DNA from: Clostridia bacterium
GTDB taxonomy: Bacteria; Bacillota; Clostridia; Christensenellales; Aristaeellaceae
NCBI GenBank assembly: GCA_017508975.1
Contig: JAFWQU010000016.1
Coordinates: forward strand, 1-34,413
DNA: 34,413 bases
Direction: 5' to 3'
The notes beneath the pieces are model-generated. The model saw only the letters and a program-made list of their open reading frames with translations. It searched no databases and was not told where the DNA came from. The position numbers and the translations under genes were made by a program. Positions 540 to 31,764 of the stretch are shown one piece after another (position 1 is the stretch's first letter; each line of letters begins with the position of its first letter).

Positions 540-636
540 TCGCGGCCTGCGGGCCGCGACCAGGGCTTTCCGATCGCCCTGGACCTTCGGTCACATGCTG
601 TTGCTGGATTTGTAATTCTTACTTGAGATTGGTATA
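540..636 (-). repeat. Two-hairpin intergenic module, copy A
   Basis: Read on the minus strand, this copy starts with ATACCAATCTCAAGTAAG, continues through CATGTGACCGAAGGT, then forms hairpin 1 (CCAGGGC, loop GATCGGAAA, GCCCTGG; plus-strand 560-582) and hairpin 2 (TCGCGGCC, loop CGCA, GGCCGCGA; 540-559). It begins 16 bp after the stop of the phosphoesterase gene, in the same direction. Closely similar copies are at 3944-4058 and 31668-31764. No run of T follows the hairpins, so a simple intrinsic terminator is not a good explanation. Confidence 0.85.
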
Positions 637-651
637 ACAGATGAAAGAAGT

Positions 652-1323
652 CTACAATCCCATCTTGGTCATGATGCCGTCGGTGGTGACGCCGGGGTGG
701 GTCACGTAGAGCCGCGCGATCTGCTCCACCAGGGCCCGGTCCAGACCGTGGCGGCGGGCGATGGCGTCCACGGACTGCCCGCGCTGGGTCTCCCGAACCA
801 CAAGCTCAATCTGCTGCCGCAGGTCGGCTCCGGCGGTATGGGGCACGGCCTCCGCGGCGCTGTGCGGGAGATCGATCCGCTCCACGGTGAAGCCGACCGG
901 CTGGACGGTCAGCCGCGCGAGGGTGATGGGCTGCAGGAAGCGCCGGGGGCCGCAGCTGCCGGGGTTCAGGACCAGCGTGCGCCTGCCGCCGGGCGCTTCG
1001 ATCCAGTTGGCCGCGTACTGGTGGGTATGCCCGCAGACTGCCAGGTCATAATCGCTCAGACGGGCCGGCAGGTCCTTCTTCTTGTGCGCCATGCAGATTC
1101 GCAGCCCGCCCAGCTCGAAATCCAGCGTCAGCGGCAGCTCCTCCGCCCAGTCCCGGTCGTTGTTTCCGCGCACGGCTTTCACCGGCGCGAGAGCCTCCAG
1201 CTGATCCAGAACGGGCCGGTGGGAGACGTCGCCGCCGTGGAGGATGGCGTCGCAGCCCCGCAGCGCCGAGAGCACCTCCGGGCGCAGCAGATCGTGGGTG
1301 TCCGAGAGAATCCCGAGAATCAT
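652..1323 (-). CDS. YfcE/MJ0936-type metallophosphoesterase with C-terminal helix-turn-helix-like extension
   Basis: A 223-residue protein. The first ~150 residues carry the full calcineurin-like phosphoesterase set: LSDTHD (D8, H10), HGGDVSH, GNND and GHTH, which bind two metal ions in the YfcE family of phosphodiesterases. The last ~65 residues are not part of the minimal fold: after a linker come QQIELVVRETQRGQSVDAIA and RHGLDRALVEQIARLYV, which read like a helix-turn-helix. The ATG at 1323 overlaps the TGA of the upstream nuclease gene by 4 bp (ATGA), indicating translational coupling; an in-frame ATG at 1365 would lie deep inside the upstream gene. The substrate is unknown. It is the last gene of the unit with the MATE, GNAT and Cas4-like genes. 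Confidence 0.85.
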   Translation of the reverse strand: MILGILSDTHDLLRPEVLSALRGCDAILHGGDVSHRPVLDQLEALAPVKAVRGNNDRDWAEELPLTLDFELGGLRICMAHKKKDLPARLSDYDLAVCGHTHQYAANWIEAPGGRRTLVLNPGSCGPRRFLQPITLARLTVQPVGFTVERIDLPHSAAEAVPHTAGADLRQQIELVVRETQRGQSVDAIARRHGLDRALVEQIARLYVTHPGVTTDGIMTKMGL

Positions 1324-1985
1324 GGCGTCCCCTCCGCTCCGTGACAGTAACCGTAATACCAGCATTCATAGGGCTTGCAGCACTGATCCCCCGGCGGCAC
1401 CGGGAGCTCCTGCGGCTCCTTCTGCAGTCGGTTCAGGTCCCAGATGTGGTCGTTGATCCAGCGGTAGAGCCCCTTGGCGTCCTTTGTGATCTCCACCGGC
1501 AGAAAGGGGTTCTCCTCGTCCGGCCCGTGCAGGACCAGAAAGACGCGCGGGATCTTCACGCCGCAGCGGACGGCGATGTAGTACTGGAAGGCAGCGTCCC
1601 GGACGAACTGCTCCTGAACCTCCGGCGCGTTCTTGACCTCGTAGAGCTCATAGCCGTCCGGCACCTTGCGGAGAATGTCCACGGCACAGTAGTTGTTGTA
1701 GTTGCTGAAGGCCGCCTCGCACAGGATGGGCGTGCCCTTGGCGAGATGCTCCGCGGTGCGCGCGAGCATCGCCTTTTTGTCCGGAATCCGCCGGCCGGGA
1801 AGATAGACCGTCATCTCCTCGTAGGGGCCGAACATGCTCATGGCGCGGTCGCCGAAGTCGTTCCCGGCGTCCAGGCGGGCCTGCACCTCCGGCGGGATCA
1901 CCCGCAGGCCGGGCTTGTGCTTGTCCAGCCAGAGCATTTTCGGACACTGCATGCCGCGCATGAAGTCTGTCTTGGTGATGGCCAT
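1320..1985 (-). CDS. Cas4-like PD-(D/E)XK nuclease, DUF2779 N-terminal type, stand-alone
   Basis: A 221-residue protein. Near the N-terminus is CPKMLWLDKHKP with C14, as in proteins carrying a DUF2779-type RecB-like nuclease. The catalytic pattern follows: AVDIL (metal-binding Asp) and ELYEVKN (E-x-K), then AAFQYYIAVRCG. The C-terminus holds a Cys cluster (QCCKPYECWYYGYC). With C14 these Cys residues could bind a 4Fe-4S cluster as in Cas4. The larger family usually continues into a C-terminal DUF2779 domain, which is absent here. The ATG at 1985 is chosen because AAGGAGG lies 8 nt before it; an ATG at 2009 has no such site. No CRISPR array or cas gene is nearby, so a general DNA-processing role is more likely than adaptation. 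It follows the GNAT gene by 16 bp. Confidence 0.75.
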   Translation of the reverse strand: MAITKTDFMRGMQCPKMLWLDKHKPGLRVIPPEVQARLDAGNDFGDRAMSMFGPYEEMTVYLPGRRIPDKKAMLARTAEHLAKGTPILCEAAFSNYNNYCAVDILRKVPDGYELYEVKNAPEVQEQFVRDAAFQYYIAVRCGVKIPRVFLVLHGPDEENPFLPVEITKDAKGLYRWINDHIWDLNRLQKEPQELPVPPGDQCCKPYECWYYGYCHGAEGTP

Positions 1986-2001
1986 ACGGCGCCTCCTTGG
2001 C

Positions 2002-2532
2002 TTATTCAAGCGGGATATCGTAACGGTTCACGCGCAGGCCGGACTCCTCGCCGGTGAGGGTGCCCACGTAGATGCCGCCCGCGGCCAGGATCGTGCGACG
2101 GCTGCCGGTGTTGATGTCCCGGCAGACCAGGCGCACGGACGTCAGCCCGCAGGCCTTCGCCTTCTCCAGGGCGAGCTGCAGCTGCGCCTTCGCGTAGCCC
2201 TTCCGGCGCTCGCTCGGGCGGACGGAGTAGCCGATGTGCGACGCGAACTCCGGATCGTCGTCGTCATATTCGAGTTTGTGCCGGAGGCAGAGAAAGCCCA
2301 CGATCCGGCCGTCCGATTTCCGGACGGACATATACCAGGAGACCTTTCCCCGCATCTCCTCGCACCAGGCGAGCCACGCTTCCACGGAGGAAAACTCCTC
2401 AAGCCCGTCCAGCCCGGGGATCCGGTCGGGGTCGGGTGTCACCCGCATCCGGTCCGCCGGGAACTCGTCCCGGTAGGCCGCAATCTCCTGCGCGTATTCC
2501 GCCGACGGGAAAACCAGCGTCAATTCGTCCAT
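2002..2532 (-). CDS. GNAT family N-acetyltransferase
   Basis: A 176-residue protein with the GNAT layout: a central strand pair ending in GRIVGFLCLRH, the acetyl-CoA loop region YSVRPSERRKGYAKAQLQ (the R/Q-x-x-G-x-A signature), then ALEKAKACGLTSVRLVCRDI and INTGSRRTILAAGG. These features match the COG3981-like acetyltransferases common in Firmicutes; the acceptor is not predictable. Its ribosome site TAGGAGG overlaps the stop codon of the MATE gene (gap of 10 bp), so the two are almost certainly cotranscribed. The order exporter-acetyltransferase could reflect detoxification of a small molecule by modification and export, but that is only a suggestion from context. Confidence 0.85.
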   Translation of the reverse strand: MDELTLVFPSAEYAQEIAAYRDEFPADRMRVTPDPDRIPGLDGLEEFSSVEAWLAWCEEMRGKVSWYMSVRKSDGRIVGFLCLRHKLEYDDDDPEFASHIGYSVRPSERRKGYAKAQLQLALEKAKACGLTSVRLVCRDINTGSRRTILAAGGIYVGTLTGEESGLRVNRYDIPLE

Positions 2533-2542
2533 GTCCGGCCTC

Positions 2543-3892
2543 CTACACCAGTACCTTGCTCTCCCAGATGCCGCTGTGGAAGCGCCAGAGGAAGAGCGCG
2601 ATGCGGAACACCCAGTCGATCTGCATGGCGACCCAGACGCCCACCACGCCCATGCCCAGCGGGATGGCGATCAGCCAGGCGGTGAAAACCCGGAAGACCA
2701 TCATGGAGACCGAGGAGACCACCATCGTAAAGCGCGTGTCGCCCGCGGCGCGCAGGCTGTTGGGCAGCACGAAGGAGAGCGGCCACAGGGTCAGCGCGCC
2801 GGCGCCGTGCAGCGCGACGATGATCCGCGCGAGACGGTCGGCCTCCGGCTCCAGGTGGTAGGGCAGCGTGATCCAGGGGTTGAGGATCAAGAGCAGGATG
2901 TTCAGCGTGCCCTGGATCAGATAGCAGATCTTCATCAGGCGCCAGGTGTACTCCCGCGCCTGTTTGAATTCATGCGCGCCGCAGCAGCGGCCCACGACCG
3001 TGATCATCGCCAGGGAGATCGCGCCGCCGGGCAGGCAGTGGAAGGTGCCCAGGCTGTTGCCCACGGCGTTGGCCGCGATGGCGTCGGTGCCGAGGGTGGC
3101 GATCATGCGCACGAGGATCAGCTTGCCGAACTGGAACAGCCCGTTCTCCAGGCCGTTCGGGACGCCGACGGTGAAGATCATGCCCGCCAGGTCGCCGCGC
3201 CAGCGCAGTCCCTGCACCGAGGGGAAGGGGAGCGGCGCGTTCGGGCGCATCATGGGTAGCTGGATCAGCACGGATCCGGCGATGCGCGAGACGAGCGTCG
3301 CCAGCGCCGCGCCGGTGACGCCCATGCCCAGCCCGTAGATGGTCAGCGCGTTCCCGGCGACGTTGATCAGGTTCATGATGAGCGAGGTGCGCAGGCTGCT
3401 GCGGGCATCGCCCACCGAGCGCAGCAGCGCCGCGCCGGCGTTGTAGATCGCCAGGAAGGGGTAGGAGAGGGCACAGTAGAAGAAGTAGACCTGCGCGGCC
3501 TCCATGACGCCCGGCGCGATGCCCCCGAAGAGCAGGCGCAGCAGTCCGTCCCGGAAGATCAGACAAAACACCATCAGGGCGAGGGAGATCAGCCCCACGA
3601 TCACATACAGGTGCCGGGAGGCCTGTTCCGCCTCCCGCTGCTCCCGCTTGCCCAGGAACTGCGAAACCACCACCGCGCCGCCGGTGGCCAGCGCCGAAAA
3701 GACCTGGATCAGCAGCACGCTGATCGAGTCCACCAGCGAGACGCCGCTCACCGCGTCCTGTCCGCAGGAGGCTACCATGACCGTGTCCGCCATGCCGATG
3801 GCCACCGCCAGCGCCTGCTCCATGAGGAGCGGCACCAGCAGATCCCGGAGATCCCGCCGGGAGAAGAGGGACTTTGAGAGGGAAGCTTGCAT
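2543..3892 (-). CDS. MATE family multidrug/sodium antiporter
   Basis: A 449-residue, about 12-helix membrane protein. The first half contains LLVPLLMEQALAVAIGMADT, then VSLVDSISVLLIQVFSALATGG and QFLGKREQREAEQASRH, typical of MATE exporters such as the NorM/DinF group; the second half repeats this architecture (GVPNGLENGLFQFGKLILVR, then NSLGTFHCLPGGAI). MATE proteins export cationic drugs or metabolites in exchange for Na+ or H+. The ATG at 3892 is chosen because AAAGG lies 7 nt upstream; in-frame ATGs at 3913 and 3934 have no good site, and 3934 lies inside a short tandem repeat. It is the first gene of a four-gene minus-strand unit. Confidence 0.9.
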   Translation of the reverse strand: MQASLSKSLFSRRDLRDLLVPLLMEQALAVAIGMADTVMVASCGQDAVSGVSLVDSISVLLIQVFSALATGGAVVVSQFLGKREQREAEQASRHLYVIVGLISLALMVFCLIFRDGLLRLLFGGIAPGVMEAAQVYFFYCALSYPFLAIYNAGAALLRSVGDARSSLRTSLIMNLINVAGNALTIYGLGMGVTGAALATLVSRIAGSVLIQLPMMRPNAPLPFPSVQGLRWRGDLAGMIFTVGVPNGLENGLFQFGKLILVRMIATLGTDAIAANAVGNSLGTFHCLPGGAISLAMITVVGRCCGAHEFKQAREYTWRLMKICYLIQGTLNILLLILNPWITLPYHLEPEADRLARIIVALHGAGALTLWPLSFVLPNSLRAAGDTRFTMVVSSVSMMVFRVFTAWLIAIPLGMGVVGVWVAMQIDWVFRIALFLWRFHSGIWESKVLV

Positions 3893-3912
3893 GCGGTGCC
3901 TTTCTGCGCTCA

Positions 3913-3960
3913 TGCTTTTCTCGAGTAGTACCAATCTCGAGTAATACCAATCTCAAGTAA
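3913..3960 (-). repeat. Short tandem repeat of a 16-bp unit at the 5' side of the MATE gene
   Basis: On the minus strand the units read ACTTGAGATTGGTATT, ACTCGAGATTGGTACT and then a partial ACTCGAGA. The same unit occurs only once at the edge of modules A and G (near 621-636 and 31668-31683). The tandem is therefore an expansion of the module B boundary, lying just upstream of the MATE coding region where it could affect transcription. Confidence 0.7.
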
Positions 3961-4058
3961 GAATTGTAAATTCAGCAACAGCATGTGACCGAAGGTCCAG
4001 GGCGATCGGAAAGCCGCCAGTCCGGCTGCGGACCTGGTCGCGGCCTGCAGGCCGCGAA
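3944..4058 (+). repeat. Two-hairpin intergenic module, copy B
   Basis: Plus-strand copy starting ATACCAATCTCAAGTAAG and passing through CATGTGACCGAAGGT. Hairpin 1 is interrupted: the GATCGGAAA loop is intact, but about 17 nt (GCCAGTCCGGCTGCGGA) are inserted within its 3' arm. Hairpin 2 is TCGCGGCC, loop TGCA, GGCCGCGA at 4038-4057; the stem is perfect and the loop differs from CGCA in the other copies. It lies between the starts of the MATE unit and the end of cysK and reads against both genes. Confidence 0.85.
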
Positions 4059-4068
4059 ACCCTGCTAA

Positions 4069-4995
4069 TCAGACAAAAAGAGGGGTGGAGAAATAGCGCT
4101 CGGCGGTGTCCGGCAGCACGGTGACCACGGTCTTGCCCGGTCCGAGCTTTTTCGCCAGGGCGATGGCCGCCGCGACGTTCGTGCCCGAGGAGATGCCGCA
4201 CATGAGGCCCTCCTCCGTGGCGAGACGCTTCGCGGTCTCCAGGGCGTCCTCGTCGGTGACGATGTGGATGTGCGAGAAGATGCCGGTGTTGAGGATCGCG
4301 GGAATCACGCCGTCGCCGATGCCCATCTGCACATGCGTGCCGATGGTGCCGCCGGCCAGGATCGCGGCGTTCTCGGGCTCCACGGCCCAGATCTCGATGT
4401 CCGGGAAACGCTCCCGCAGAACCTCGCCGATGCCGGTGATAGTGCCGCCGGTGCCGATGCCGGAGCAGAAGCCGTCGATGGGGCCGTCGATATCCGCCAG
4501 GATCTCGGCCGCGGTGCCCTCGCGCTGGGCGGACAGGTTGTTGGGGTTCTCGAACTGCTGCGGGACGAAAACCCGGGGATCCGCCGCCGCCATGTCCATG
4601 GCCAGGTCCAGGCAGGCCTGGATGCACTTGCCGATGTCCCCGTCGTCGTGGATCAGGCGGACCTGCGCGCCGTAATGCTCCACGAGCAGCCGGCGCTCGG
4701 CACTGACCGAGTCGGGCATGATGATGACGGTCCGGTAGCCGCGCACGGCGCCCACCAGCGCCAGGCCGATGCCCTGGTTGCCGCTGGTCGGCTCCACGAT
4801 GATGGAGTCCGGGTTCAGCCGGCCCTCGCGCTCCGCGGCCAGAATCATGCGGTAGGCGGTGCGTGTCTTGATGGAGCCGCCGACGTTCAGTCCCTCATAC
4901 TTCACGAGGATGCGCGCGGCGTCCGGCGGCTGCATCCGGTTCAGGCGGATCAGCGGGGTGTGTCCGAGCGCCTGCAGGACGTTTTCATAGATCAC
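4069..4995 (-). CDS. cysK: Cysteine synthase (O-acetylserine sulfhydrylase), PLP-dependent
   Basis: A 308-residue fold-type II PLP enzyme. The Schiff-base lysine is K43 in GGSIKTRTA; the cofactor and substrate loops EPTSGNQGIGLA and GIGTGGTITGIGE and the late GISSGTNVAAA motif are present. The length equals that of CysK. The usual GGSVKDR around the lysine is here GGSIKTR, a variant I associate with a common Clostridia subgroup, so a related activity on another O-activated serine or homoserine cannot be excluded. The start is GTG at 4995 with GGGAGGAG about 6 nt upstream; no ATG is well placed. No serine acetyltransferase gene is nearby. It lies just downstream of the ribosomal-protein operon terminator. 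Confidence 0.88.
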   Translation of the reverse strand: MIYENVLQALGHTPLIRLNRMQPPDAARILVKYEGLNVGGSIKTRTAYRMILAAEREGRLNPDSIIVEPTSGNQGIGLALVGAVRGYRTVIIMPDSVSAERRLLVEHYGAQVRLIHDDGDIGKCIQACLDLAMDMAAADPRVFVPQQFENPNNLSAQREGTAAEILADIDGPIDGFCSGIGTGGTITGIGEVLRERFPDIEIWAVEPENAAILAGGTIGTHVQMGIGDGVIPAILNTGIFSHIHIVTDEDALETAKRLATEEGLMCGISSGTNVAAAIALAKKLGPGKTVVTVLPDTAERYFSTPLFV

Positions 4996-5040
4996 GGGAA
5001 TCTCCTCCCTTTGGTATGGATAAAACGGGACAAGAGACGA

Positions 5041-5075
5041 AAAGAACCTGTCCGGCGGGGCCGGACAGGTTTGTG
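5041..5075 (-). terminator. Intrinsic terminator of the rplU-prp-rpmA operon
   Basis: A perfect 12-bp stem (AACCTGTCCGGC at 5045-5056 pairing with 5060-5071, 3-nt loop) followed on the minus strand by TTCTTTTC. It lies 10 bp after the rpmA stop codon. Confidence 0.88.
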
Positions 5076-5080
5076 CGCGT

Positions 5081-5383
5081 TTACTGGATCGGGGCGGCTT
5101 CCTCCACCGGATAGACGGAAACCTTTTTCTTGTCGCCGCCGGCGTAGGTCTCGAACCGCACCGTGCCGGCCACCTTCGCGAAGAGGGTGTCGTCCTTGCC
5201 GATGCCGACGTTCAGGCCGGGATGGATCTTGGTGCCGCGCTGCCGGACCAGGATAGCGCCGCCCTGGGCGAACTGGCCGTCGGCACGCTTCGGGCCCAGA
5301 CGCTTGGACTCGCTGTCGCGGCCGTTGCGGGTGGAGCCCATGCCCTTTTTATGGGCGAAGAGCTGCAGATTCATTTTCATCAT
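5081..5383 (-). CDS. rpmA: 50S ribosomal protein L27, with Firmicutes N-terminal extension
   Basis: A 100-residue protein starting [19 protein letters not shown]27 sits at the peptidyl-transferase centre. The extension up to LQLF is the known Firmicutes feature that Prp removes, leaving AHKKG as the mature N-terminus; [18 protein letters not shown] and the following [15 protein letters not shown] are family hallmarks. The ATG at 5383 overlaps the prp stop (ATGA) and has AAGGAAGG at proper spacing; ATGs at 5380 and 5374 are alternatives that would alter only the part that is cleaved off. In many Firmicutes obgE follows rpmA; here a terminator and cysK follow instead. Confidence 0.97.
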
Positions 5384-5718
5384 GGTTTTGTACCTTCCTT
5401 CCGTATCGAGAACTTGACATAGCGTGGATAGGTCCCAGCGATGTCCTCCAGTCCGAGCCGCAGGCTTTGCAGCAGCAGCTGCGCGTCCGGCGTCATGGCT
5501 TCCGGCGGGATGCGGATGCTCAATTGCCCGTCCTCGCCGCACTCGGCGATGTCCTTCAGCCCGCAGAGGGCCTCGAGACTGTTGGCACAGGTGATGCTCA
5601 GCGCGCTGACCGCTGCGCAGACGATGTCGCTGCCCTGCTCCGCGTAGCCGGAGTGGCCGCGGAGCTCACAGCCCGTGAGCTGCCCGGAGGCATCCAGGAT
5701 CATGACTGCCCGGATCAT
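5380..5718 (-). CDS. prp: Ribosomal-processing cysteine protease Prp
   Basis: A 112-residue protein of the YsxB/Prp family. The catalytic pair is visible: H22 in [14 protein letters not shown] and C34 in VCAAVSAL. Prp cleaves the N-terminal extension from L27, an essential step for ribosome assembly in Firmicutes such as Staphylococcus aureus. It lies between the L21 and L27 genes, as is normal, and both junctions are 4-bp ATGA overlaps (with rplU at 5715-5718 and with rpmA at 5380-5383), so the three proteins are translationally coupled. Confidence 0.95.
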
Positions 5719-6023
5719 GCGTTGATCGCGGTGATCTCCACTTTCGTGTAGGGCTGACGGTGGCCCGTCTTCCGGTCGTAGTTCTTCTTGCTCTTGTACT
5801 TGCCGATGATGATCTTCTTGCCCTTGACCTGGCTGATCACCTTGCCCTCGACCTTGGCGCCCTCCAGCAGGGGAGTTCCGACCTTCACGTCGGCGCCCTC
5901 GCCCGCCATCAGCACGTCGAAGCTGATGGAGCTGCCATCCTCCTGGTCTACCTTCTCGATGTAGATCACATCACCCTGGGAGACCTTGTACTGTTTTCCG
6001 CCCGCTGCAATGATCGCGTACAC
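5715..6023 (-). CDS. rplU: 50S ribosomal protein L21
   Basis: A 102-residue protein with the L21 start YAIIAAGGKQYKVSQGD and the C-terminal signature KGKKIIIGKYKSKKNYDRKT followed by GHRQPYTKVEI. L21 is a 50S subunit protein binding 23S rRNA. The start is GTG at 6023 preceded by AGGAGG with 9 nt spacing; there is no ATG in position. It is the first gene of the rplU-prp-rpmA operon. Confidence 0.97.
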   Translation of the reverse strand: MYAIIAAGGKQYKVSQGDVIYIEKVDQEDGSSISFDVLMAGEGADVKVGTPLLEGAKVEGKVISQVKGKKIIIGKYKSKKNYDRKTGHRQPYTKVEITAINA

Positions 6024-6117
6024 CTTGCAGCACCTCCTGATTATAGACTCGCCGGGACATGAGGTAGCGCCTCGCGGCGCGATTTGGACAGACCTCTCCC
6101 GAGCGGCTTGCCCGAGT
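6024..6117 (-). promoter_or_regulatory. 5' leader of rplU operon, candidate L21 leader RNA
   Basis: About 90 nt of untranslated transcript lie between the promoter and the GTG start. It can form small hairpins, for example CGCGCC...GGCGC and CTCGGG/CCGCTCGGG-type pairings. Firmicutes rplU operons often carry an autoregulatory L21 leader at this place. The position fits, but I could not confirm the consensus by eye. Confidence 0.4.
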
Positions 6118-6146
6118 AGAATACCATAGAATGGCAGGGCCGTCAA
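6118..6146 (-). promoter_or_regulatory. Promoter of rplU-prp-rpmA
   Basis: Minus strand: -35 TTGACG (6146-6141), 17-bp spacer, -10 TATTCT (6123-6118). A run of A precedes it (AAAAAAACAC), resembling an UP element, as expected for a ribosomal operon. Confidence 0.85.
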
Positions 6147-6171
6147 GTGTTTTTTTCCGGCTTTCCGCGGG

Positions 6172-6200
6172 TTCCGAAAACCGCGGAATGGTGATATAAT
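6172..6200 (+). promoter_or_regulatory. Promoter of the VanZ-VOC gene, extended -10
   Basis: Perfect TATAAT at 6195-6200 preceded by TGA (extended -10, TGn), with a weak -35 TTCCGA at 6172-6177 and a 17-bp spacer. It diverges from the rplU promoter just to the left. Confidence 0.75.
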
Positions 6201-6221
6201 CAACACGATGGGGGGAGCGCC

Positions 6222-7301
6222 ATGAACGCAAACAGCCTGTCGACCAACCTGATCGTCACCGCCCTTGCGCTGGTGATGGTTTTTGTGCTGCCCTGGGCGG
6301 ACCGCCGGATCTGCCGGCGTCTGGGGCTCAATCTGCAGGGCGGCCTGAGCAGCAACCCCCGGGCGGAGACGCTCCTGCGGGTCCGGTTCACGATCCTTTG
6401 TACGGCGCTGGGCGTCTATCTGGCCGCACTGGCGTATCTGGTTTTCTTCTCCCGCTCGGCATCCGAGGACTATCAGGTGCACATCGCGCCGTTCGCCGAT
6501 CTGCGCAACGCGGTGCGGATCGACTACGGAGTTTTCGGTCTCCTGAGGTCGCTCCTGACGGAGGGGCTCTCCGGCGCGGCCGCCCACGTGAAGATTGTCC
6601 GGGCGGAGGACATCACCCAGGTCTATATGAACGTCATGCTGATGGTGCCCATGGGGTATCTGCTGCCCTATATCTTTCCGTGGTTCCGGGCGAAGGCGCG
6701 GATCCGGCCGGTCATGGCCTGCTTCGCGGCTGCGCTGCTGACCGAGAACCTGCAGCTGATCTTCCGCCGCGGCTTCTATGACATGGACGACCTGATCGCC
6801 AACACCCTCGGCGGTCTGGTGGGACAGTCCCTGTTCCGGTCCGTGGCGTATGTGGTCACGCACCCGGACTGGCGCAAGGAGCGGGCGTCCTACCGGCGGT
6901 GGAAGCGCAACGCCCGGACCCGCACCCTCTACCCCTTCGCCCGCCGGATGGACGTCGCCCGGGCGGCGCTCCTGGCCACGGACGAGGGCGCGATCTGGGA
7001 TTTCTATGTGATGAAGCTGGGCTTCCGGCTGATCGGACAGCTGGTGCCCATGGACTCGGAGGGGACGGACCTTCTGCTGGAGATGGGCCGCTGCCAGATT
7101 GAGGTGCACTGCTCGAACCGGACAGACCTCCTGCCGCAGCAGACCCTGACCTTCTCCGTCCGCCGCCTGCGGCCCATTATCCGGCGGCTGCGGGAGAACG
7201 GCATCGAGACGGGGGAGATCCTGCAGGACCCCTACACCGCGCAGCGCAGTATCCGGCTGCAGGGGCCGGACGGCGTGAGCGTGGTCTTCATCGAGCGGTA
7301 A
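6222..7301 (+). CDS. VanZ-like membrane protein fused to a C-terminal VOC (glyoxalase-like) domain
   Basis: A 359-residue protein. An N-terminal membrane helix (~10-25) is followed by a VanZ-like region: RVRFTILCTALGVYLAALAY, the extracytoplasmic loop DLRNAVRIDYGVFG, NVMLMVPMGYLLPYIFP, then TENLQLIFRRGFYDMDDLIAN and NTLGGLVGQ, all typical of VanZ. From about residue 245 the sequence changes to a soluble domain: AIWDFYVMKLGFRLIGQL, LLLEMGRCQIEV, LTFSVRRLRPIIRRLRENGI and GPDGVSVVFIE, matching the strand-helix pattern of the vicinal oxygen chelate superfamily (glyoxalase, bleomycin-binding and fosfomycin-resistance proteins). The VOC part would be cytoplasmic. VanZ proteins can lower teicoplanin binding, but most are of unknown role. 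It is followed after 21 bp by the YdcF-like gene. Confidence 0.82.
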   Translation: MNANSLSTNLIVTALALVMVFVLPWADRRICRRLGLNLQGGLSSNPRAETLLRVRFTILCTALGVYLAALAYLVFFSRSASEDYQVHIAPFADLRNAVRIDYGVFGLLRSLLTEGLSGAAAHVKIVRAEDITQVYMNVMLMVPMGYLLPYIFPWFRAKARIRPVMACFAAALLTENLQLIFRRGFYDMDDLIANTLGGLVGQSLFRSVAYVVTHPDWRKERASYRRWKRNARTRTLYPFARRMDVARAALLATDEGAIWDFYVMKLGFRLIGQLVPMDSEGTDLLLEMGRCQIEVHCSNRTDLLPQQTLTFSVRRLRPIIRRLRENGIETGEILQDPYTAQRSIRLQGPDGVSVVFIER

Positions 7302-8830: not shown

Positions 8831-9076
8831 ATTCCGCGCCTGCGGGCGCGGCCAGAGGCTTTCCGATCGCCTCTGGACTCTTCGGGTGCACCTTTTTTGA
8901 GTGTTCGAGTCAGCATTGTTCAGTAACCTTTGCCGCCCCAGCTTGCTGGGGAGGTGCCCGAAGGGCGGAGGGGCTTTCTTTCCTTGCTTTCTCTAAGCCT
9001 TCAAAAGAAGATGCTGCCGACGGTCCATGGCGATCGGAAAGCCGCCAGTCCGGCAGCGGCCCGCAGGCCGCGGAAT
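8831..9076. repeat. Composite intergenic repeat with inverted-repeat ends, left copy
   Basis: About 245 bp with ends that are inverted versions of the two-hairpin module. The left arm (8832-8886) holds CCGCGCC-TGCG-GGCGCGG and CCAGAGGC (8852-8859) pairing with GCCTCTGG (8869-8876) around TTTCCGATC, the reverse complement of the GATCGGAAA loop. The right arm (9017-9076) holds the same loop on the plus strand but its first stem is degenerate (CCATGGC...). The centre includes a 37-nt stretch (8938-8974) identical to 9958-9994. The second copy is at 9850-10084 in the same orientation, so the two copies are direct repeats bracketing queT. No ORF in it looks real. Confidence 0.85.
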
Positions 9077-9761: not shown

Positions 9762-9787
9762 ACGCTCCCGCTCAGGGGGCGTTTTTT
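9762..9787 (+). terminator. Intrinsic terminator of queT
   Basis: ACGCTCCC pairs with GGGGGCGT (8 bp, one G-T pair) around a GCTCA loop and is followed by TTTTTT. It lies 7 bp after the queT stop codon. Confidence 0.9.
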
Positions 9788-9849: not shown

Positions 9850-10084
9850 TTCCGCGCCTGCGGGCGCGGCCAGGGGCTTTCCGATCGCCTCTGGACTCTT
9901 CGGGGCTGCACCTTTTTGGAGTGTATGGGTCAGCATTGTCCAGTAACCTTTGCCTCTCCAGCTTGCTGGGGAGGTGCCCGAAGGGCGGAGGGGCCGTCCA
10001 TGCTTTCTCCAAGCCTCCAAAAGAGGATGCTGCCGAAGGTCCAGGGCGATCGGAAAGCCCTGGTCGCGCCCGCAGGCGCGAAAT
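9850..10084. repeat. Composite intergenic repeat with inverted-repeat ends, right copy
   Basis: Second copy, in the same orientation as 8831-9076. Left arm 9850-9903: CCAGGGGC (9870-9877) pairs with GCCTCTGG (9887-9894), with one G-T pair when read on the plus strand. Right arm 10033-10084: perfect CCAGGGC (10041-10047), loop GATCGGAAA, GCCCTGG (10057-10063), then TCGCGCC-CGCA-GGCGCGA (10064-10081). The arms are therefore terminal inverted repeats of roughly 50 bp. The centre carries the 37-nt stretch identical to the first copy at 9958-9994. Confidence 0.85.
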
Positions 10085-25689: not shown

Positions 25690-27843
25690 ATGAGCACACG
25701 CATGCGCGGCGGTTTTACGCTGCCGGGGGAGGCGGGGTATGAGGCGCTGACCCTCTCCCTGGCGGAGAAGTGGGGCGCCGACGTCATCCGGGACAGCGAC
25801 GGCACCCGCCTGAGCGACGAGATCGTCCGCGCCGGATACGGCATCTACTCCACTATCTGCATCATCCGGCAGCACAACGCTTTCGCGGAGGCGCACCCGG
25901 ACAGCCAGCAGCAGACCTTCCTGTCCTCCGATCCGGTGATGGCCGAGGGGAGCACGCTGATCCTCGACCCGATGGCGGGCTTCTTCCGGGAGCAGTTCGA
26001 GCCGAACACCTCGCCGGCGGCGCTGCGCTACTGGCAGGTCTGGGACCGCACCGCCGGGACGGAGCTGTCCCGGGACTGCTGGACCCTGCGGGAGGACGGG
26101 CGCGTTCAGCTGACCGGCTGCACGCCCTGGCACCGCTATACCGTCTCCTTCCTCGCCTGGCGCATCTGGGAGGAGATCAACATGTACAACCACACGACGA
26201 ACCACTGGACCAGCGAGCACCTGCGGCAGCTGGACCCGCGGCATCCGGAGGCGTGTGCGTACCTGTGCGGCTGGCTGGAGGACTGGTGCCGGGCGAACCC
26301 GGACACCACGGTCGTGCGCTTCACCTCCCTGTTCTACAATTTCGTGTGGATCTTCGGCGAGGATCTCCGGCGGCGGACGCGCTACTGCGACTGGGCGAGC
26401 TATGACTTCACGGTGAGCCCCGCCGCGCTGCAGGCCTTCGAGCAGCAGACCGGGCAGGCGCTCACGGCGGAGGATTTCATCCGACAGGGTCACCTGCAGC
26501 CGACCCACCGGCCGCCGACTCCCGCCAAGCGGGCGTGGATGGACTTCATCCAGGCGTTCGTGGCGGAGAGGGCGAAGGCGCTGGTGGAGATCGTGCACCG
26601 CTATGGCAAGAAAGCCTATGTCTTCTACGACGACAGCTGGGTGGGCCTCGAGCCCAACGGCCCGCGCTTCCGGGAGATCGGCTTCGACGGGCTGATCAAG
26701 TGCATCTTCTCCGGCTTTGAGTGCCGCCTGTGCGCCAACGCGCAGGTGCCCACCCACGAGATCCGGCTGCACCCCTATCTGTTCCCGGTGGGGCTCGGCG
26801 GACTGCCCACCTTCTCGGAGGGCGGACACCCGGAGCGCGACGCGCGAGCCTACTGGGTCAGCGCCCGGCGTGCGCTGGTCCGCAAGCCGGTGGACCGCAT
26901 CGGCTTGGGCGGCTATCTGCACCTGACGGAGGGCTATCCGGCGTTCGTGGACGCCATTGCGGACATCGCCGACGAGTTCCGGCGGATCAAGGCCCTGCAC
27001 GAGGCGGGCGAACCGGAGACGCTGCCGCTGACGGCGGCGGTGCTGACCACCTGGGGCGAACTGCGGGCCTGGACCTGCTCCGGACACTTCCACGAGACCT
27101 ACATGCACCCGCTGATCCACGTGCTGGAGGCGCTCTCCGGGCTGCCGGTGCGGGTGAAATTCCTGACCTTCGCGGAGGCGGCCGACGGCGGGCTGTCCGG
27201 CGTGGACGCGGTGATCAGCGCCGGCCGGGCGGGGGACGCCTGGAGCGGCGGCGAGGCCTGGGCCGATACCCGGCTGGTGGACGCGCTGACGCGCTTCGTC
27301 TGGGAGGGCGGGACCCTGCTGGGGATTGGCGAGCCCTCCGCGCTGCCCGGCGGGGACACCTTCTTCCGGATGGCGCATGTGCTGGGCGTGGACGAGGACA
27401 ACGGCGTCTACGTCTGCCACAGCCCCTGGAGCTGGGAGACGCAGCCGGACGGCACGATCCCGCTGGAAGCCGGGATGCTGGGCGCGAATCCGGCGATCCG
27501 GCTGACCGACGGGGAGGGGCGCGTACTGGCGGAGGCCGCGGGCGCGCCGCAGGCGGTGGTGCATGCCTTTGGAAAGGGCCGGGGCATCTATCTGAGCGAC
27601 TTCCAGTGGAAGCCCGGGCGCGCGCTGGCGCTGCTGCGGCTGCTGAACTGCGGGCGCGGGGAGCTTCCGGGCTGGGTAAGCATGGATCCGCGGGTGGAGA
27701 CCGCCTGGTATCCCGCCTCCGGCACACTGGTGGCCCTGAACAACGCGGACGAGCCGGTGACGCTCACGCTCTGCCCGGACGGAAAACCGGTGCAGCTGGC
27801 GCTGGCGCCGCTGGAGACAAAAATACTGCAGCCAAACGCATGA
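25690..27843 (+). CDS. GH112 phosphorylase, probably D-galactosyl-beta-1,4-L-rhamnose phosphorylase
   Basis: A 717-residue protein matching GH112 along its full length: RGGFTLPGEAGYEALTLSLA at the start, EKWGADVIRDSDGTRLSDEI, YNHTTNHW, FTSLFYNFVWIFGEDLRRR, YDFTVSPAALQAFE, KKAYVFYDDSWVGLEPNG (region of the catalytic Asp) and FRMAHVLGVDEDNG. The architecture is a TIM barrel (~1-435), a Rossmann-like domain (~440-640) and a C-terminal beta domain. GH112 enzymes cleave beta-galactosides with phosphate to give galactose-1-phosphate; acceptors are N-acetylhexosamines or L-rhamnose. The adjacent rhamnose mutarotase favours the rhamnose type, but residues alone do not settle this for me. AAGGAGG precedes the ATG. 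No signal peptide, so it acts in the cytoplasm. Confidence 0.9.
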   Translation: MSTRMRGGFTLPGEAGYEALTLSLAEKWGADVIRDSDGTRLSDEIVRAGYGIYSTICIIRQHNAFAEAHPDSQQQTFLSSDPVMAEGSTLILDPMAGFFREQFEPNTSPAALRYWQVWDRTAGTELSRDCWTLREDGRVQLTGCTPWHRYTVSFLAWRIWEEINMYNHTTNHWTSEHLRQLDPRHPEACAYLCGWLEDWCRANPDTTVVRFTSLFYNFVWIFGEDLRRRTRYCDWASYDFTVSPAALQAFEQQTGQALTAEDFIRQGHLQPTHRPPTPAKRAWMDFIQAFVAERAKALVEIVHRYGKKAYVFYDDSWVGLEPNGPRFREIGFDGLIKCIFSGFECRLCANAQVPTHEIRLHPYLFPVGLGGLPTFSEGGHPERDARAYWVSARRALVRKPVDRIGLGGYLHLTEGYPAFVDAIADIADEFRRIKALHEAGEPETLPLTAAVLTTWGELRAWTCSGHFHETYMHPLIHVLEALSGLPVRVKFLTFAEAADGGLSGVDAVISAGRAGDAWSGGEAWADTRLVDALTRFVWEGGTLLGIGEPSALPGGDTFFRMAHVLGVDEDNGVYVCHSPWSWETQPDGTIPLEAGMLGANPAIRLTDGEGRVLAEAAGAPQAVVHAFGKGRGIYLSDFQWKPGRALALLRLLNCGRGELPGWVSMDPRVETAWYPASGTLVALNNADEPVTLTLCPDGKPVQLALAPLETKILQPNA

Positions 27844-27857
27844 GAGGAGCGGACAGC

Positions 27858-28175
27858 ATGGAACGGTTTGCCTGGAAAGGACGCATCAAACCCGGGATGC
27901 AGGCGGAGTACAAGCGGCGGCATGACGAGATCTGGCCGGAGATGCTGGAACTGCTGAAATCCGCGGGCATCGCCAACTACTCGATCTGGAGCGACGGGAA
28001 CGAGGTCTTCGGCTACTACGAGTGCGAGCAGGGCATCGAATTCGCGGAGCGCACTCAGGCCGGAAGCCCGATCGTGGACCGCTGGAACGACTACATGCAG
28101 GACGTGCTGGAGCTGGAAATGGACCCGGAGACGGGCGCCCAGCCGAAGCTCAGACAGATGTTTTTCATGGCGTGA
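27858..28175 (+). CDS. rhaM: L-rhamnose mutarotase
   Basis: A 105-residue protein of the YiiL/RhaM family: FAWKGRIKPGMQAEYKRRHD with the conserved H and EIWPEM, then KSAGIANYSIW, and DRWNDYMQDVLE. The family interconverts the alpha and beta anomers of L-rhamnose through a His/Tyr/Trp site. The ATG at 27858 has GAGGAG about 9 nt upstream; an ATG at 27840 overlapping the GH112 stop would add six residues. Its place directly after GH112 suggests it processes the rhamnose released by phosphorolysis. RhaA, RhaB and RhaD are not in the window. Confidence 0.93.
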   Translation: MERFAWKGRIKPGMQAEYKRRHDEIWPEMLELLKSAGIANYSIWSDGNEVFGYYECEQGIEFAERTQAGSPIVDRWNDYMQDVLELEMDPETGAQPKLRQMFFMA

Positions 28176-28190
28176 GGGAGGAGAATGAGC

Positions 28191-30239
28191 ATGAGCGAGA
28201 AGAATCTGACGCCCAAGCCGGCGGAACCCAAGCAGGAGATCCCGGAGAGCAGTCTGGGCATCCTCAAGCGCCATCCGGAGCTCAGACCCTGGACCGGCGA
28301 TCTGGAGCTGCGCGATCAGCTGCACACGAAGAAGCGCGCTCAGCTGCTGCCGGAGGGCGGGAGCCTGTCGGACTTTGCCGACGGCCACCTCTACTACGGC
28401 TTCCACAAGCTGGAGGACGGCTGGGTCTACCGCGAATGGGCGCCCGGCGCGGACCAGCTGTATCTGACGGGTGACTTCAACAACTGGCACTGGCTGGACA
28501 CGCCGCTCACGAAGCTCGAGAAGGGCAACTGGGAGGTGAAGCTCCCGGGGGACACGATCCACCAGGGCAGCCGCGTGATGACCATCGTGCGCAACGGCGA
28601 CCGGCTGACGCAGCACCTGCCGCTGTACGCGCGGCGCGTGACCCAGGACTGGGTGTCGCAGAGCTGGTGCTGCGAGGTCTGGGGCGACCAGGACAATTTC
28701 GTCTGGACGGACGCGGATTTCGAAAACACCGAGCCGCCGCTGATCTATGAGGCGCACGTCGGCATGAGCAGCGAGGAGGGCCGCATCGCCACCTACCGCG
28801 AGTTCGCGGACGACCGCCTGCCCTACATCAAGGAGCTGGGCTACAACACCGTGCAGCTCATGGCGATCATGGAGCACCCCTTCTACGGCTCCTTCGGCTA
28901 CCAGGTCAGCAATTTCTTCGCCGCCTCCAGCCGCTATGGCTATCCGGACGAGCTGAAGTATCTGGTGAACAAGGCGCACAGCCTGGGCCTGCGGGTGCTG
29001 CTGGACGTGGTGCACTCCCACGCGGTGGGCAACACGCTGGAGGGCATCAACCTCTTCGACGGCACGTCCTACCAGTTCTTCCACGAAGGCCCCAAGGGCG
29101 ACCACAGCGCCTGGGGCACCAAGTGCTTCAACTACGACAAGCCGGAGGTGCTGCACTTCCTGCTGTCGAACCTGAAGTTCTGGATGCAGGAGTACCACTT
29201 TGACGGCTTCCGCTTCGACGGCGTGACCTCCATGCTCTACCACGACCACGGCCTGGGCACCGCCTTCAGCAAGCTCGACTACTACTTCACCATGAACACG
29301 GACACCGAGGCCGTGACCTATCTGCAATTGGCCAACGAGCTGATCCGGGAGGTCAACCCCAAGGCGCTGAGCATCGCAGAGGACATGTCCGGCATGCCCG
29401 GCATGTGCGAGCCCGTGGCGGACGGCGGCATCGGCTTCGACTACCGGCTGGGCATGGGCCTGCCGGACATGTGGATCCGCCTGGCCAAGGAACGCAGGGA
29501 CGAGGATTGGAACCTCGGGGATATCTGGTATCAGATGACCTTCCGCAACGCGCCGACGGTGGCCTATGTGGAGAGCCATGACCAGGCGCTGGTGGGCGAC
29601 AAGACCATGATGTTCCGCTTTGCCGACGCCGCGATGTACGACCAGATGAACAAGGACTGCCACACGCTGGTCATCGACCGCGCGATGGCGCTGCATAAGA
29701 TGATCCGTCTGCTGACCCTGGCGGCGGGCGGCACCGGCTATCTGAACTTCATGGGCAACGAGTTCGGCCATCCCGAGTGGATCGACTTCCCGCGGCCGGG
29801 CAACGGCAACAGCTTCCACTATTGCCGCCGGCAGTGGAGCCTGATGAGAAACCCGGACCTGAAGTATCAGTATCTGTATCAGTTCGACCACGATATGCTC
29901 GCCGTGATCAAGGAGCACAAGGTGCTCGAGCAGACCTGGCCGACGCTGAACTGGACCCACGAGGCCGAGCACGTGCTGGCCTTCGAGCGCGGCGGACTGC
30001 TGTTTGTGTTCAACTTCTCGCCGGACCGCAGCTATGAGAGCTATCCGATCCCGGTGGACGAGGCCGGCGACTGGCAGATGATCCTCTCCAGCGACGACGC
30101 GGTCTATGGCGGCTGGGCCCGCAACGAGCACGGCCGATTCAGCGCCCTGGCGCCCGGCAAGGAAAAGCCCACCGTCCGCCTCTACCTGCCCGCCCGCACC
30201 TGCGTGGTGCTGGAGCCGGTGAAGGGAAAGAAGGACTGA
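28191..30239 (+). CDS. glgB: 1,4-alpha-glucan branching enzyme, eukaryote-like GH13 subtype
   Basis: A 682-residue enzyme with an N-terminal CBM48-type beta domain (VYREWAPGADQLYLTGDFNN), a GH13 barrel and a C-terminal beta domain. YEAHVGMSSEEGRIATYREF, MEHPFYGSFGYQVSNFFAAS, LGLRVLLDVVHSHAVGN, and FMGNEFGHPEWIDFPRPGNG resemble the plant/animal branching enzymes (GH13_8) rather than the E. coli type. Catalytic residues: nucleophile D343 (GFRFDGVTSM), acid/base E397 (SIAEDMSG), stabiliser D464 (ESHDQAL). The ATG at 28191 is preferred to 28185 because GGGAGGAG is then at 7-8 nt. No other glycogen gene is adjacent, which is unusual; it follows rhaM by 15 bp. Confidence 0.93.
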   Translation: MSEKNLTPKPAEPKQEIPESSLGILKRHPELRPWTGDLELRDQLHTKKRAQLLPEGGSLSDFADGHLYYGFHKLEDGWVYREWAPGADQLYLTGDFNNWHWLDTPLTKLEKGNWEVKLPGDTIHQGSRVMTIVRNGDRLTQHLPLYARRVTQDWVSQSWCCEVWGDQDNFVWTDADFENTEPPLIYEAHVGMSSEEGRIATYREFADDRLPYIKELGYNTVQLMAIMEHPFYGSFGYQVSNFFAASSRYGYPDELKYLVNKAHSLGLRVLLDVVHSHAVGNTLEGINLFDGTSYQFFHEGPKGDHSAWGTKCFNYDKPEVLHFLLSNLKFWMQEYHFDGFRFDGVTSMLYHDHGLGTAFSKLDYYFTMNTDTEAVTYLQLANELIREVNPKALSIAEDMSGMPGMCEPVADGGIGFDYRLGMGLPDMWIRLAKERRDEDWNLGDIWYQMTFRNAPTVAYVESHDQALVGDKTMMFRFADAAMYDQMNKDCHTLVIDRAMALHKMIRLLTLAAGGTGYLNFMGNEFGHPEWIDFPRPGNGNSFHYCRRQWSLMRNPDLKYQYLYQFDHDMLAVIKEHKVLEQTWPTLNWTHEAEHVLAFERGGLLFVFNFSPDRSYESYPIPVDEAGDWQMILSSDDAVYGGWARNEHGRFSALAPGKEKPTVRLYLPARTCVVLEPVKGKKD

Positions 30240-30255
30240 GCGACGGGAGGCCGGC

Positions 30256-31668
30256 ATGAAGCAAATTGTCTGTGAACTGTGCGGATGCACCCGGTTCTCG
30301 AAGGAGGACGGCTGGTTCATCTGCGGCGGCTGCGGGACGCGCTATTCCCAGGCGGAGGCGCGAAATATGCTCCGGGAGGTCCCGGACGCGCCCGGGGCAG
30401 CCGGGCCGGAACCGGCTGCCCCGGTCCAGCCCCCGGAGACCGCCGAGCGCTCGGAAAAGCTGCTCCTGCTCGCAAGGCGGGCGAAGGAGTCCAACGACTC
30501 CGTCACCGCGGCGAAATACTACCAGGAGCTGCTCCTGGAGGAGCCGGAGAACTGGGAGGCAGCCTTCTACACGATCTACTTCGACGCCATGAACGGCAAG
30601 ATCGCCCAGATCGGCGAGGCCGCTGCCCGGGTGAGCAACTCGCTGGACTATGTGTTTGAGCTGATCAAAAAGCGTCCGCGGGAGGAGTGGGAGAAGGACA
30701 GCGTGGAGGTCGTCGGACAGGTGAGTGCGCTGGCGCTGATGCTGAGCAAAAACGCGGCGGACACTATTCGCCAGAACGCTTCCGGACCGCTGTTCTATAC
30801 GACACAAGAGACGAACGCCATGATAGACCGCAATCCCCAGCAGGCGTTCGCAACCCTTATGCTGCTGAAGAAGAACAGAGACGTGGCCGGACCTAACGCC
30901 AACAGCTGGTTTGCGCCGATCGGCAGTATGCTCATCAACCTGGGGGATAAACTCCACCAGGAGATGGGATGGAACTATGGGCAGGTGAAAGCGGTCTATG
31001 ACGTTGCGGCGTCCGCAGTAGGCGTTGCGAGGAATCTGTTGTTCCGACAGGATTCCACGGGCGACGAACTGAAAAAGCATATGGCGGCAATCGGCATGCA
31101 AGATGTCTATGAAACCTACATGCTGGCAAACCAACGTAAGAAAGACGCTGAGTGGAACGCCCAACAGGAGGAGAGGCAGCGAAAGGAACAGGAGCGCGAA
31201 CGGATCCGCCTCTATTGGGAAGAACACACAGAGGAGCGGGACGCGATCGTGGGGGAGGCAGCGGAGCTGCAGCGGCAGGCGGACGGCCTTCAGAAGGAGA
31301 TTTGGAAGCTGGAGGAGGAAACGAACCGGGAAAACCGGGAATTCCGCAAGTCGGCGGGCCCTCTGGAACAGCAGTACAGAGATCTGGAGACACGCATCCG
31401 CGAGAAAGAGCGGGTACGGAATTCGCTGGGACTGTTCAAGGGCAAGGAAAAGCAGCGGTTAACTGACGAGATCGAAAAGTTACGCAAGCAGCAGCCGGAC
31501 GAAACCGACTGGAAGCGGGAGAAGGCCGACCGGGAGCGCGCTTTCCGGGAGCGGACAAAACCTCTGCAGGAAGAGATCAGACAGCTGCGCACATCGTGGG
31601 ATGAACTGAACCGGAAGGCCGACGCCCTGCGGGCAAAGCTCACGCGGATACCGGAGGAGAAAGCTTGA
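30256..31668 (+). CDS. Zinc-ribbon protein with long C-terminal coiled coil
   Basis: A 470-residue protein. N-terminal zinc ribbon C6-x2-C9 with C11, and C23-x2-C26 (CELCGC; FICGGCG), then a Pro/Ala-rich linker, a helix-pair region (EKLLLLARRAKESNDSVTAA; KYYQELLLEEPENWEAAFYT) like a single TPR, a mid domain, and from ~290 a highly charged coiled coil (KKDAEWNAQQEERQRKEQER; REKERVRNSLGLFKGKEKQR). Function unknown; it looks like a scaffold. Base composition of 30800-31200 is visibly less GC-rich than its neighbours. Its TGA stop touches module G. It follows glgB by 16 bp. Confidence 0.72.
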   Translation: MKQIVCELCGCTRFSKEDGWFICGGCGTRYSQAEARNMLREVPDAPGAAGPEPAAPVQPPETAERSEKLLLLARRAKESNDSVTAAKYYQELLLEEPENWEAAFYTIYFDAMNGKIAQIGEAAARVSNSLDYVFELIKKRPREEWEKDSVEVVGQVSALALMLSKNAADTIRQNASGPLFYTTQETNAMIDRNPQQAFATLMLLKKNRDVAGPNANSWFAPIGSMLINLGDKLHQEMGWNYGQVKAVYDVAASAVGVARNLLFRQDSTGDELKKHMAAIGMQDVYETYMLANQRKKDAEWNAQQEERQRKEQERERIRLYWEEHTEERDAIVGEAAELQRQADGLQKEIWKLEEETNRENREFRKSAGPLEQQYRDLETRIREKERVRNSLGLFKGKEKQRLTDEIEKLRKQQPDETDWKREKADRERAFRERTKPLQEEIRQLRTSWDELNRKADALRAKLTRIPEEKA

Positions 31669-31764
31669 TACCAATCTCAAGTAAGAATTGCAAATCAAGA
31701 AAAGGCATGTAACCGAAGGTCCAGGGCGATCGGAAAGCCCTGGTCGCGCCCGCAGGCGCGAAAT
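31668..31764 (+). repeat. Two-hairpin intergenic module, copy G
   Basis: Plus-strand copy starting at the last base of the preceding stop codon: ATACCAATCTCAAGTAAG, CATGTAACCGAAGGT, hairpin 1 CCAGGGC (31721-31727), loop GATCGGAAA, GCCCTGG (31737-31743), hairpin 2 TCGCGCC-CGCA-GGCGCGA (31744-31761). Relative to copy A, the second stem has changed on both sides (GCGGCC/GGCCGC to GCGCC/GGCGC), so pairing is kept. Confidence 0.85.

What the first reader, a model, noticed from the sequence alone, without database searches (positions are those of the whole stretch)
540..31764. Unnamed two-hairpin intergenic module with an invariant loop and covarying stems, seven arms in one window
Hairpin 1 keeps a 9-nt loop GATCGGAAA in all copies while its stem changes on both sides: CCAGGGC/GCCCTGG (560-582, 10041-10063, 31721-31743) versus CCAGAGGC/GCCTCTGG (8852-8876). 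Hairpin 2 keeps a 4-nt loop while the stem varies: TCGCGGCC/GGCCGCGA, TCGCGCC/GGCGCGA, CCGCGCC/GGCGCGG. Compensatory change means selection on folding or spread of folded single-stranded DNA. Solo copies also share a 5' box ATACCAATCTCAAGTAAG. It could be a REP/REPIN- or MITE-like element mobilised by an outside transposase, or a structured RNA at transcript ends. I do not know a named family with this loop.
Basis: partly seen in the sequence, partly recalled or inferred. Interest (0 to 1): 0.78.

Follow-up and report, generated by a model that had tools for sequence, protein, structure and literature searches.

The report
Mobile RNA pseudoknot after stop codons
A small folded RNA knot that sits just behind the ends of genes in some gut and rumen Clostridia and their phages has been copied hundreds of times in several of these genomes; it matches no family in the RNA library searched and looks like a mobile mRNA-end module.

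Summary
In detail: seven arms, all between genes. Read on the other strand, an arm is a hairpin plus an H-type pseudoknot: stem S1, loop TTT-CCGA-TC, and a downstream TTCGG pairing with CCGA of the loop. This explains the "invariant loop". Relatives and phages confirm it: with loop GCGR the tail is TTCGC (42 distinct copies, one exception), with CCGR it is TTCGG (202 distinct, two exceptions). S1 and the first hairpin change on both sides. Where linker length fits S1 (33 of 74 distinct pairs), its sequence follows S1 in parallel register (118 of 124). Rfam has no match at gathering score. The own genome holds 349 copies of the loop. In phages and other, mostly low-copy species the sense strand follows stop codons (phages 43:9, loop a median 14 nt after the stop); in G000, G009, G035 and G011 it does not. 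One class in the own lineage is a 134-155 nt MITE with TNA target duplications (12 of 13). No RAYT, reverse transcriptase or TnpB was found in G000, G009, G035 or G011; no mobiliser was identified. Best reading: a new 3'-UTR pseudoknot, probably protecting or insulating the upstream message, captured and spread by MITEs. Structure well supported; function inferred.

The parts
538..590 (+). arm 1, sense strand: hairpin 2, then S1 CCAGGGC with loop TTTCCGATC, linker ACCT, tail TCGG
   Evidence: model R1 51.3 bits, E 8e-13; fold z -4.2
618..635 (-). 5' box ATACCAATCTCAAGTAAG of arm 1 (MITE-type terminal repeat; no matching 3' repeat found)
   Evidence: position; repeat defined
3944..3961 (+). 5' box ATACCAATCTCAAGTAAG of arm 2
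3989..4059 (-). arm 2, sense strand, with 18-nt hairpin insert in S1
   Evidence: R1 24.7 bits, E 3e-5
8832..8885 (+). arm 3, S1 CCAGAGGC; left arm of first inverted pair
   Evidence: R1 64.3 bits, E 1.7e-16
9017..9075 (-). arm 4, shortened insert form with decayed stem; right arm of first inverted pair
   Evidence: R1 20.8 bits, E 4e-4
9850..9903 (+). arm 5, S1 CCAGGGGC/GCCTCTGG (one G-T pair); left arm of second inverted pair
   Evidence: R1 62.4 bits
10033..10083 (-). arm 6, S1 CCAGGGC; right arm of second inverted pair
   Evidence: R1 62.1 bits
31668..31685 (+). 5' box of arm 7; the repeat TACCAATCTCA starts at 31669, directly after the TGA stop (31666-31668) of the gene 30256-31668
31713..31763 (-). 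arm 7, S1 CCAGGGC
   Evidence: R1 62.1 bits

Best explanation
The arms are copies of a new cis-acting RNA. Its sense strand reads: short hairpin, mostly with a TGCG loop (absent in many phage copies); S1 5' strand; TTT; NCGR; TC; S1 3' strand; linker; TTCGN. The loop's NCG(R) pairs with the downstream (T)CGN to make an H-type pseudoknot, with the linker probably running along S1. It works as a 3'-UTR module right behind stop codons, most likely as a structural roadblock that protects or insulates the upstream message from 3' degradation or from downstream events (inferred). In the window's lineage it was captured as cargo by short non-autonomous transposons (TNA duplications), is also found as inverted pairs, and was amplified to hundreds of copies. 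There, orientation no longer follows the genes, and many window copies are probably passengers. Shown: structure by covariation, position and strand bias, copy numbers, target duplications. Inferred: base triples, exonuclease or insulation role, and that capture came after the 3'-UTR role.
For: Pseudoknot covariation; S1 and hairpin-2 covariation; linker sequence follows S1 in the 33 of 74 distinct pairs that fit a length rule; orthologous sites that keep the element with compensated stems (L170/L190, L218/L072); sense bias behind stop codons in phages 43:9 and other species 34:10, absent in G000, G009 and G035; phage loop a median 14 nt after the stop, 41 of 49 within 60 nt; 8 of 20 scanned phage upstream genes are major head and 2 major tail proteins; 20 scanned host upstream genes are of many families; depleted between divergent genes; no T-tract directly behind S1 in 317 of 317 distinct copies; MITE duplications 12 of 13.
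Against: No transcript, 3' end or decay data exist here. Sense bias is absent in G000, G009 and G035 and leans the other way in G011 (7:14, p 0.19), so most copies in the genomes with the most copies show no sign of this role. Two of the window's arms lie outside two canonical terminators and may not be transcribed. 41 of 74 distinct S1/linker pairs do not fit the length rule. The fourth S2 pair is absent in variants of G025 and G748. The phage gene enrichment comes partly from related phages, and 80 other genes of the same contigs already hold at least 6 major head proteins.
Confidence: 0.5

Rival explanations
1. Selfish REP/BIME-like DNA: a transposase not yet recognised binds the folded single strand, and structure is kept for mobility, not for a role in mRNA.
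For: Hundreds of similar, species-specific copies in G000, G009, G035 and G011; inverted pairs (-,+) are the commonest of the pairs closer than 600 nt: 16 of 22 in own stretches, 23 of 31 in G009, 21 of 41 in G035; patchy presence within one family.
Against: No Y1, RVT_1 or TnpB in G000, G009, G035 or G011; strand bias and stop-codon anchoring in phages and other species; retention with compensated stems at orthologous sites.
Confidence: 0.25
2. Transcription terminator or attenuator without a U-tract, limiting read-through after abundant products.
For: Position behind stop codons and often behind phage head genes; enrichment between convergent genes; few separate intrinsic terminators beside convergent copies (7 of 96 against 8 of 44 convergent ends without a copy).
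Against: No T-tract directly after S1 in any of 317 distinct copies and after the tail in 15 of 317; phage operons would be cut repeatedly (inference); S2 covariation is not needed for a terminator hairpin.
Confidence: 0.13
3. A self-cleaving ribozyme or a protein-binding site of unknown kind in 3' UTRs.
For: Near-invariant nucleotides in the loop (TTT, CG, TC) beyond what pairing needs.
Against: No ribozyme family of Rfam matches; cleavage and binding are untested.
Confidence: 0.08
4. Neutral palindromes: stems are kept perfect by template switching, not by selection.
For: Quasi-palindrome correction is a known mutational process (recalled) and would also give paired changes in S1.
Against: It does not predict the S2 covariation across S1 or the linker-S1 register, nor the strand bias.
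Confidence: 0.04

Closest known systems
REP / BIME elements and RAYTs (abstract and outline of PMC2817692; passages of PMC12306157)
   Same: Many short palindromic intergenic copies, alternating orientation, species-specific variants, and copies close behind stop codons
   Different: Pseudoknot core with CCGAAGG, not a hairpin with a GTAG foot (foot recalled); no Y1 transposase in five carriers tested, one in G005; also in phage contigs
MITEs with TNA or TWA duplications (IS5/IS1031 groups, recalled)
   Same: Type A: 134-155 nt, terminal inverted repeats, 3-nt TNA duplications
   Different: Carries a conserved RNA pseudoknot; no DUF4096 transposase in G000, and its only DDE_Tnp_1 frame has no type A ends; other copies lack these ends
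H-type RNA pseudoknots in viral 3' UTRs and exonuclease-resistant RNAs (recalled)
   Same: 3'-UTR position, compact pseudoknot, possible loop-stem contacts
   Different: No Rfam relation found; bacterial and phage; function untested
ERIC / BOX modular repeats (recalled)
   Same: Modular imperfect palindromes of about 100-200 nt, transposase unknown or lost
   Different: Core here is a pseudoknot with strand bias in phages and some species

Membership tests
REP/REPIN | many extragenic palindromic copies | tested here: met
   349 loops in 1.52 Mb against 1 control; 6 of 87 copies in own stretches, 0 of 53 in G009 and 0 of 68 in G035 fell in called genes
REP/REPIN | cognate RAYT (Y1 transposase) in the genome | tested here: not met
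   PF01797 absent in G000 (66% complete), G009, G035, G011, G019; one in G005, two in low-copy G008
REP/REPIN | simple hairpin with conserved 5' GTAG-type foot (recalled) | tested here: not met
   core is a pseudoknot with CCGAAGG / TTCGG
MITE (type A class) | terminal inverted repeats and target duplication | tested here: met
   TAC..GTA ends; identical TNA flanks in 12 of 13 complete elements; 9 of 11 with a looser end pattern
MITE (type A class) | autonomous partner with the same ends | tested here: inconclusive
   none in the fetched stretches; no PF13340 in G000, and its one PF01609 frame lacks these ends; genome 66% complete
Rfam RNA families | match at gathering score | tested here: not met
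   0 in window, 0 in 140 kb of seven loci with copies; relaxed search of five loci gives 3 chance-level hits
Intrinsic terminator | U-tract directly after the hairpin | tested here: not met
   0 of 317 after S1, 15 of 317 after the tail
Structured RNA with conserved pseudoknot | paired substitutions in each helix | tested here: met
   hairpin 2: 3 of 7 pairs; S1: 5 of 9; S2: 1 of 4 with changes on both sides
IS605-type TnpB omega-RNA elements | TnpB gene in carriers | tested here: not met
   PF07282 absent in 12 of 12 genomes

The most novel reading that the evidence does not exclude
A new class of mobile 3'-UTR: a pseudoknot RNA with a stem-linker contact zone that phages and their Clostridia hosts share, that protects or insulates messages, and that small transposons carry so that insertion at stop codons (TNA includes TAA and TGA) fits a gene with a ready-made mRNA end.
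Probability: 0.27. Interest if true: 0.87.

Novelty: new variant of a known kind. Interest (0 to 1): 0.72.

Why it matters
It links two things usually studied apart: repetitive extragenic palindromes and cis-acting RNA. The pseudoknot is testable at once in vitro. If it blocks nucleases, it gives Clostridia and their phages a portable 3'-end module and would help explain why such repeats are tolerated and spread behind genes without a RAYT.

Tried and rejected
RAYT-driven REPs: no Y1 in G000, G009, G035, G011, G019. Retroelement: no RVT_1 in G000, G009, G035, G011, G005; one in G019. TnpB/omega-RNA: none in 12 genomes. Known Rfam family. Autonomous copies: no transposase with these ends found; the one DDE frame in G000 (L245) has other inverted repeats. 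Intrinsic terminator: no T-tract; my test for separate terminators downstream was inconclusive. My first gene caller picked antisense frames in GC-rich DNA and was discarded; one search replaced it. Of six loci around single matches in relatives (L001-L006), only L001 shows the element; five are chance. Bridge-RNA (IS110) elements were considered but not searched. An alignment of all stem lengths (A1) misplaced stems and was not used for counts. Papers: nothing naming this element in the listings (four of these returned no paper); PMC8040213 (abstract and passages seen) lists thousands of gut RNA candidates whose tables I could not search, so an unnamed earlier listing is possible. After the recount (33 of 74 linker pairs in register) I lowered the probability of the novel case from 0.30 to 0.27.
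Full report
What was given. The finding named seven two-hairpin arms with loop GATCGGAAA. The loop is there seven times against 0.24 expected, always between called genes. Its own genome (G000, 1.52 Mb in 26 contigs, 66% complete) holds 349 copies against 1 for the reversed control. Among 60 genomes (own included) 30 have GATCGGAAAGCC: 512 in G009, 314 in G000, 274 in G035, 62 in G011, 33 in G005, 15 in G019 and 0-10 in the others. Some single hits are chance: of six loci L001-L006 only one shows the element. In a phylum sample 6 of 398 genomes (own included) have the 15-mer GGCGATCGGAAAGCC, and in an order sample 9 of 297. The covariance model finds 24 of 150 relatives (own included), 23 of them in the own family (at most 37 candidates scored per genome).

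The structure. CCGA and TCGG are complementary, so the loop can form an H-type pseudoknot with the tail; this explains why both look invariant. Over all loci held, loops CCGR have tail TTCGG in 323 occurrences (202 distinct) and loops GCGR have TTCGC in 51 (42 distinct); one GCGA has TTCGG and two CCGA have TTCGA or TTCGT. Occurrences include overlapping loci; the distinct numbers do not. Rarer loops with a tail in that call: TCGA 2, CCCA 1 and CTGA 1 with TTCGG, GCAA 1 with TTCGC. Element-like copies without TTCG in the stretch searched were set aside (6 CCGA, 2 CCGG, 2 ACGA). The call required six perfect S1 pairs. The GCGR variant dominates in G011 (226 matches to GGCGATCGHAAAGCC) and is common in G001 (22) and G004 (27). 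With a looser choice (four of the first five S1 pairs; own, G009, G035 and other-species loci) S1 positions 1-7 pair in 152 to 178 of 179 distinct cores.

Counts on alignments. On a gap-free alignment of 36 nine-bp copies (23 distinct), 49 cells change on both sides against 17.9 in shuffles and 0-9 when slid; the outer S2 pair is C-G in 11, G-C in 11 and broken in 1. With hairpin 2 included (22 copies), paired changes occur in 3 of 7, 5 of 9 and 1 of 4 pairs of the three helices. These copies were picked because both hairpins and a tail could be found, so the percentage paired is biased upward; the covariation is less so. Related copies are not independent events.

Linker and S1. In one search, 7 bp go with 4 nt (87 of 218 distinct cores), 8 with 5 (35), 9 with 6 (47), and 49 have other combinations. 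Counted by distinct S1/loop/linker records, 51 of 93 fit this rule, and 33 of 74 distinct S1/linker pairs. In those 33, in parallel register, the linker has C opposite S1 G and A or T opposite S1 A at 118 of 124 positions (first linker base left out), against a shuffle mean of 97 and maximum of 110 in 5000. The rule was read off the same sequences. It is what one expects if the linker runs along S1 in the direction of its 5' strand; the base triples are inference. S2 is not always four pairs: loops TTTCCGCTC and TTTCCGTTC occur in G025 and G748.

Forms. An 18-nt hairpin insert, and a longer internal domain of about 70 nt whose own hairpin differs in sequence but stays paired, occur: the insert in G000 and two named MAGs, the domain in G000, G009, G011, G004 and, in another version, G035. 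No Rfam family matches: window, seven loci, five loci at relaxed threshold, best E 0.019 at 25 bits against a gathering score of 137.

Where it sits. In co-directional gaps the sense strand runs with the genes in 43 against 9 phage copies (p 2e-6) and 34 against 10 in other species (p 4e-4), but 20:18 in G000, 8:7 in G009, 6:6 in G035 and 7:14 in G011 (copies with identical flanks removed). Phage copies before that removal: 49 with both neighbours in sense; stop to loop quartiles 9, 14, 31 nt; gaps with a copy median 88 nt, all 454 co-directional gaps 17 nt. Nine of 72 phage occurrences fell inside a called gene; some of these look like chance matches or wrong frames. Of 27 upstream phage genes listed (over 450 bases, loop within 38 nt), 20 were scanned, the others being repeats or from the same contig pair L094/L096: 8 match major head protein families, 2 major tail, 2 terminase, 2 portal, 1 protease, 1 baseplate, 1 primase and 3 nothing named. 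Eighty other genes of these contigs (of 187 candidates) give 6 matches to the commonest major head family and 6 to major tail; only the first 25 of 106 families are shown. The excess for head genes is therefore moderate, and some of the phages are related. Twenty of 24 host genes directly upstream (loop within 60 nt) belong to many families; only VanY is best hit twice. Copies avoid divergent gaps: 3 of 77, 0 of 39 and 0 of 62 classified copies in G000, G009 and G035, while divergent gaps are 17 of 190, 14 of 107 and 27 of 139.

Gain, loss and retention. Two phage contigs with 98-99% identical flanks differ by 86 nt with the element against 10 nt without (L193, L095), and other related phages lack or hold it at one site. 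At other orthologous sites both keep it with compensated stems: L170/L190 in phages, and L218 (G608) against L072 for hairpin 2. So it comes and goes, yet at these sites the fold is kept.

Mobility. One class in the own lineage has ends TAC(C/T)..TCTCA and TGAGA..GTA, 134-137 nt, or 154-155 nt with the insert; 12 of 13 complete copies (11 from G000 stretches, 2 from MAG RGIG5966) have identical TNA triplets on both sides (9 of 11 with a looser end pattern). TAA and TGA are such triplets. In the window the repeat of arm 7 begins directly after the TGA stop of gene 30256-31668. None of the window's three single arms has both ends. No mobiliser was found: Y1, RVT_1 and TnpB are absent from G000, G009, G035 and G011; DUF4096 is absent from G000; its only DDE_Tnp_1 frame lies in an element with other inverted repeats. 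The commonest pairs (-,+) place both arms so that a transcript entering from either side meets the sense strand first (orientations).

Is it a terminator? No T-tract follows S1 in 317 of 317 distinct copies with a tail; 15 have one after the tail. In the window the second pair lies between two ordinary intrinsic terminators, 9762-9782 on + and 10146-10127 on -, so these two arms are probably outside transcripts. The test for separate terminators elsewhere was inconclusive.

Mechanism. Best supported: a cis-acting 3'-UTR pseudoknot acting as a roadblock or insulator behind the stop codon. Structure, position and strand bias are shown; the protective role is inferred from place, compactness and the phage head genes. 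E. coli REPs within 15 nt of a stop codon are reported to downregulate translation (passages of PMC12306157), so an effect on translation is an open variant of the same idea. In the window's lineage most copies behave as passengers of mobile elements.

Novelty. The motif has no Rfam match at gathering score, and no paper listed in my searches names it, but thousands of unnamed gut RNA candidates exist (PMC8040213, abstract and passages), so I call it a new variant of known kinds (REP-like repeats, MITEs, 3'-UTR RNA) rather than a new kind.

Noticed in passing
window 8936-8973 and 9956-9993: Between the arms of both inverted pairs lies another palindromic repeat (CCAGCTTGCTGGGGAGGTGCCCGAAGGGCGGAGGGG and neighbours), also seen beside other copies in G000; a second REP-like family.
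   Followed up: no
L017 4451-4503, L029, L031, L208, L201 and others: A longer form with a domain of about 70 nt inside hairpin 1 whose own hairpin differs between species but stays paired; possibly the fuller RNA of which the short form is a reduction.
   Followed up: partly
L245 (G000) 1126-2331: A DDE_Tnp_1-like transposase frame, apparently broken, in an element with inverted repeats near 813 and 2468; two copies of the arm lie in the same locus near 147 and 204.
   Followed up: partly
L177, L200, L198: Some phage contigs carry both CCGR and GCGR variants, each with its matching tail, in one contig.
   Followed up: no
L130, L131 (MT836735, MT838741): Human fecal phage records also carry the element, so it is not limited to the rumen.
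   Followed up: partly
L039, L041, L052, L065, L067, G009:C7, G727: Copies often lie close to contig ends, as expected if the repeat breaks assemblies; true copy numbers may be higher.
   Followed up: no
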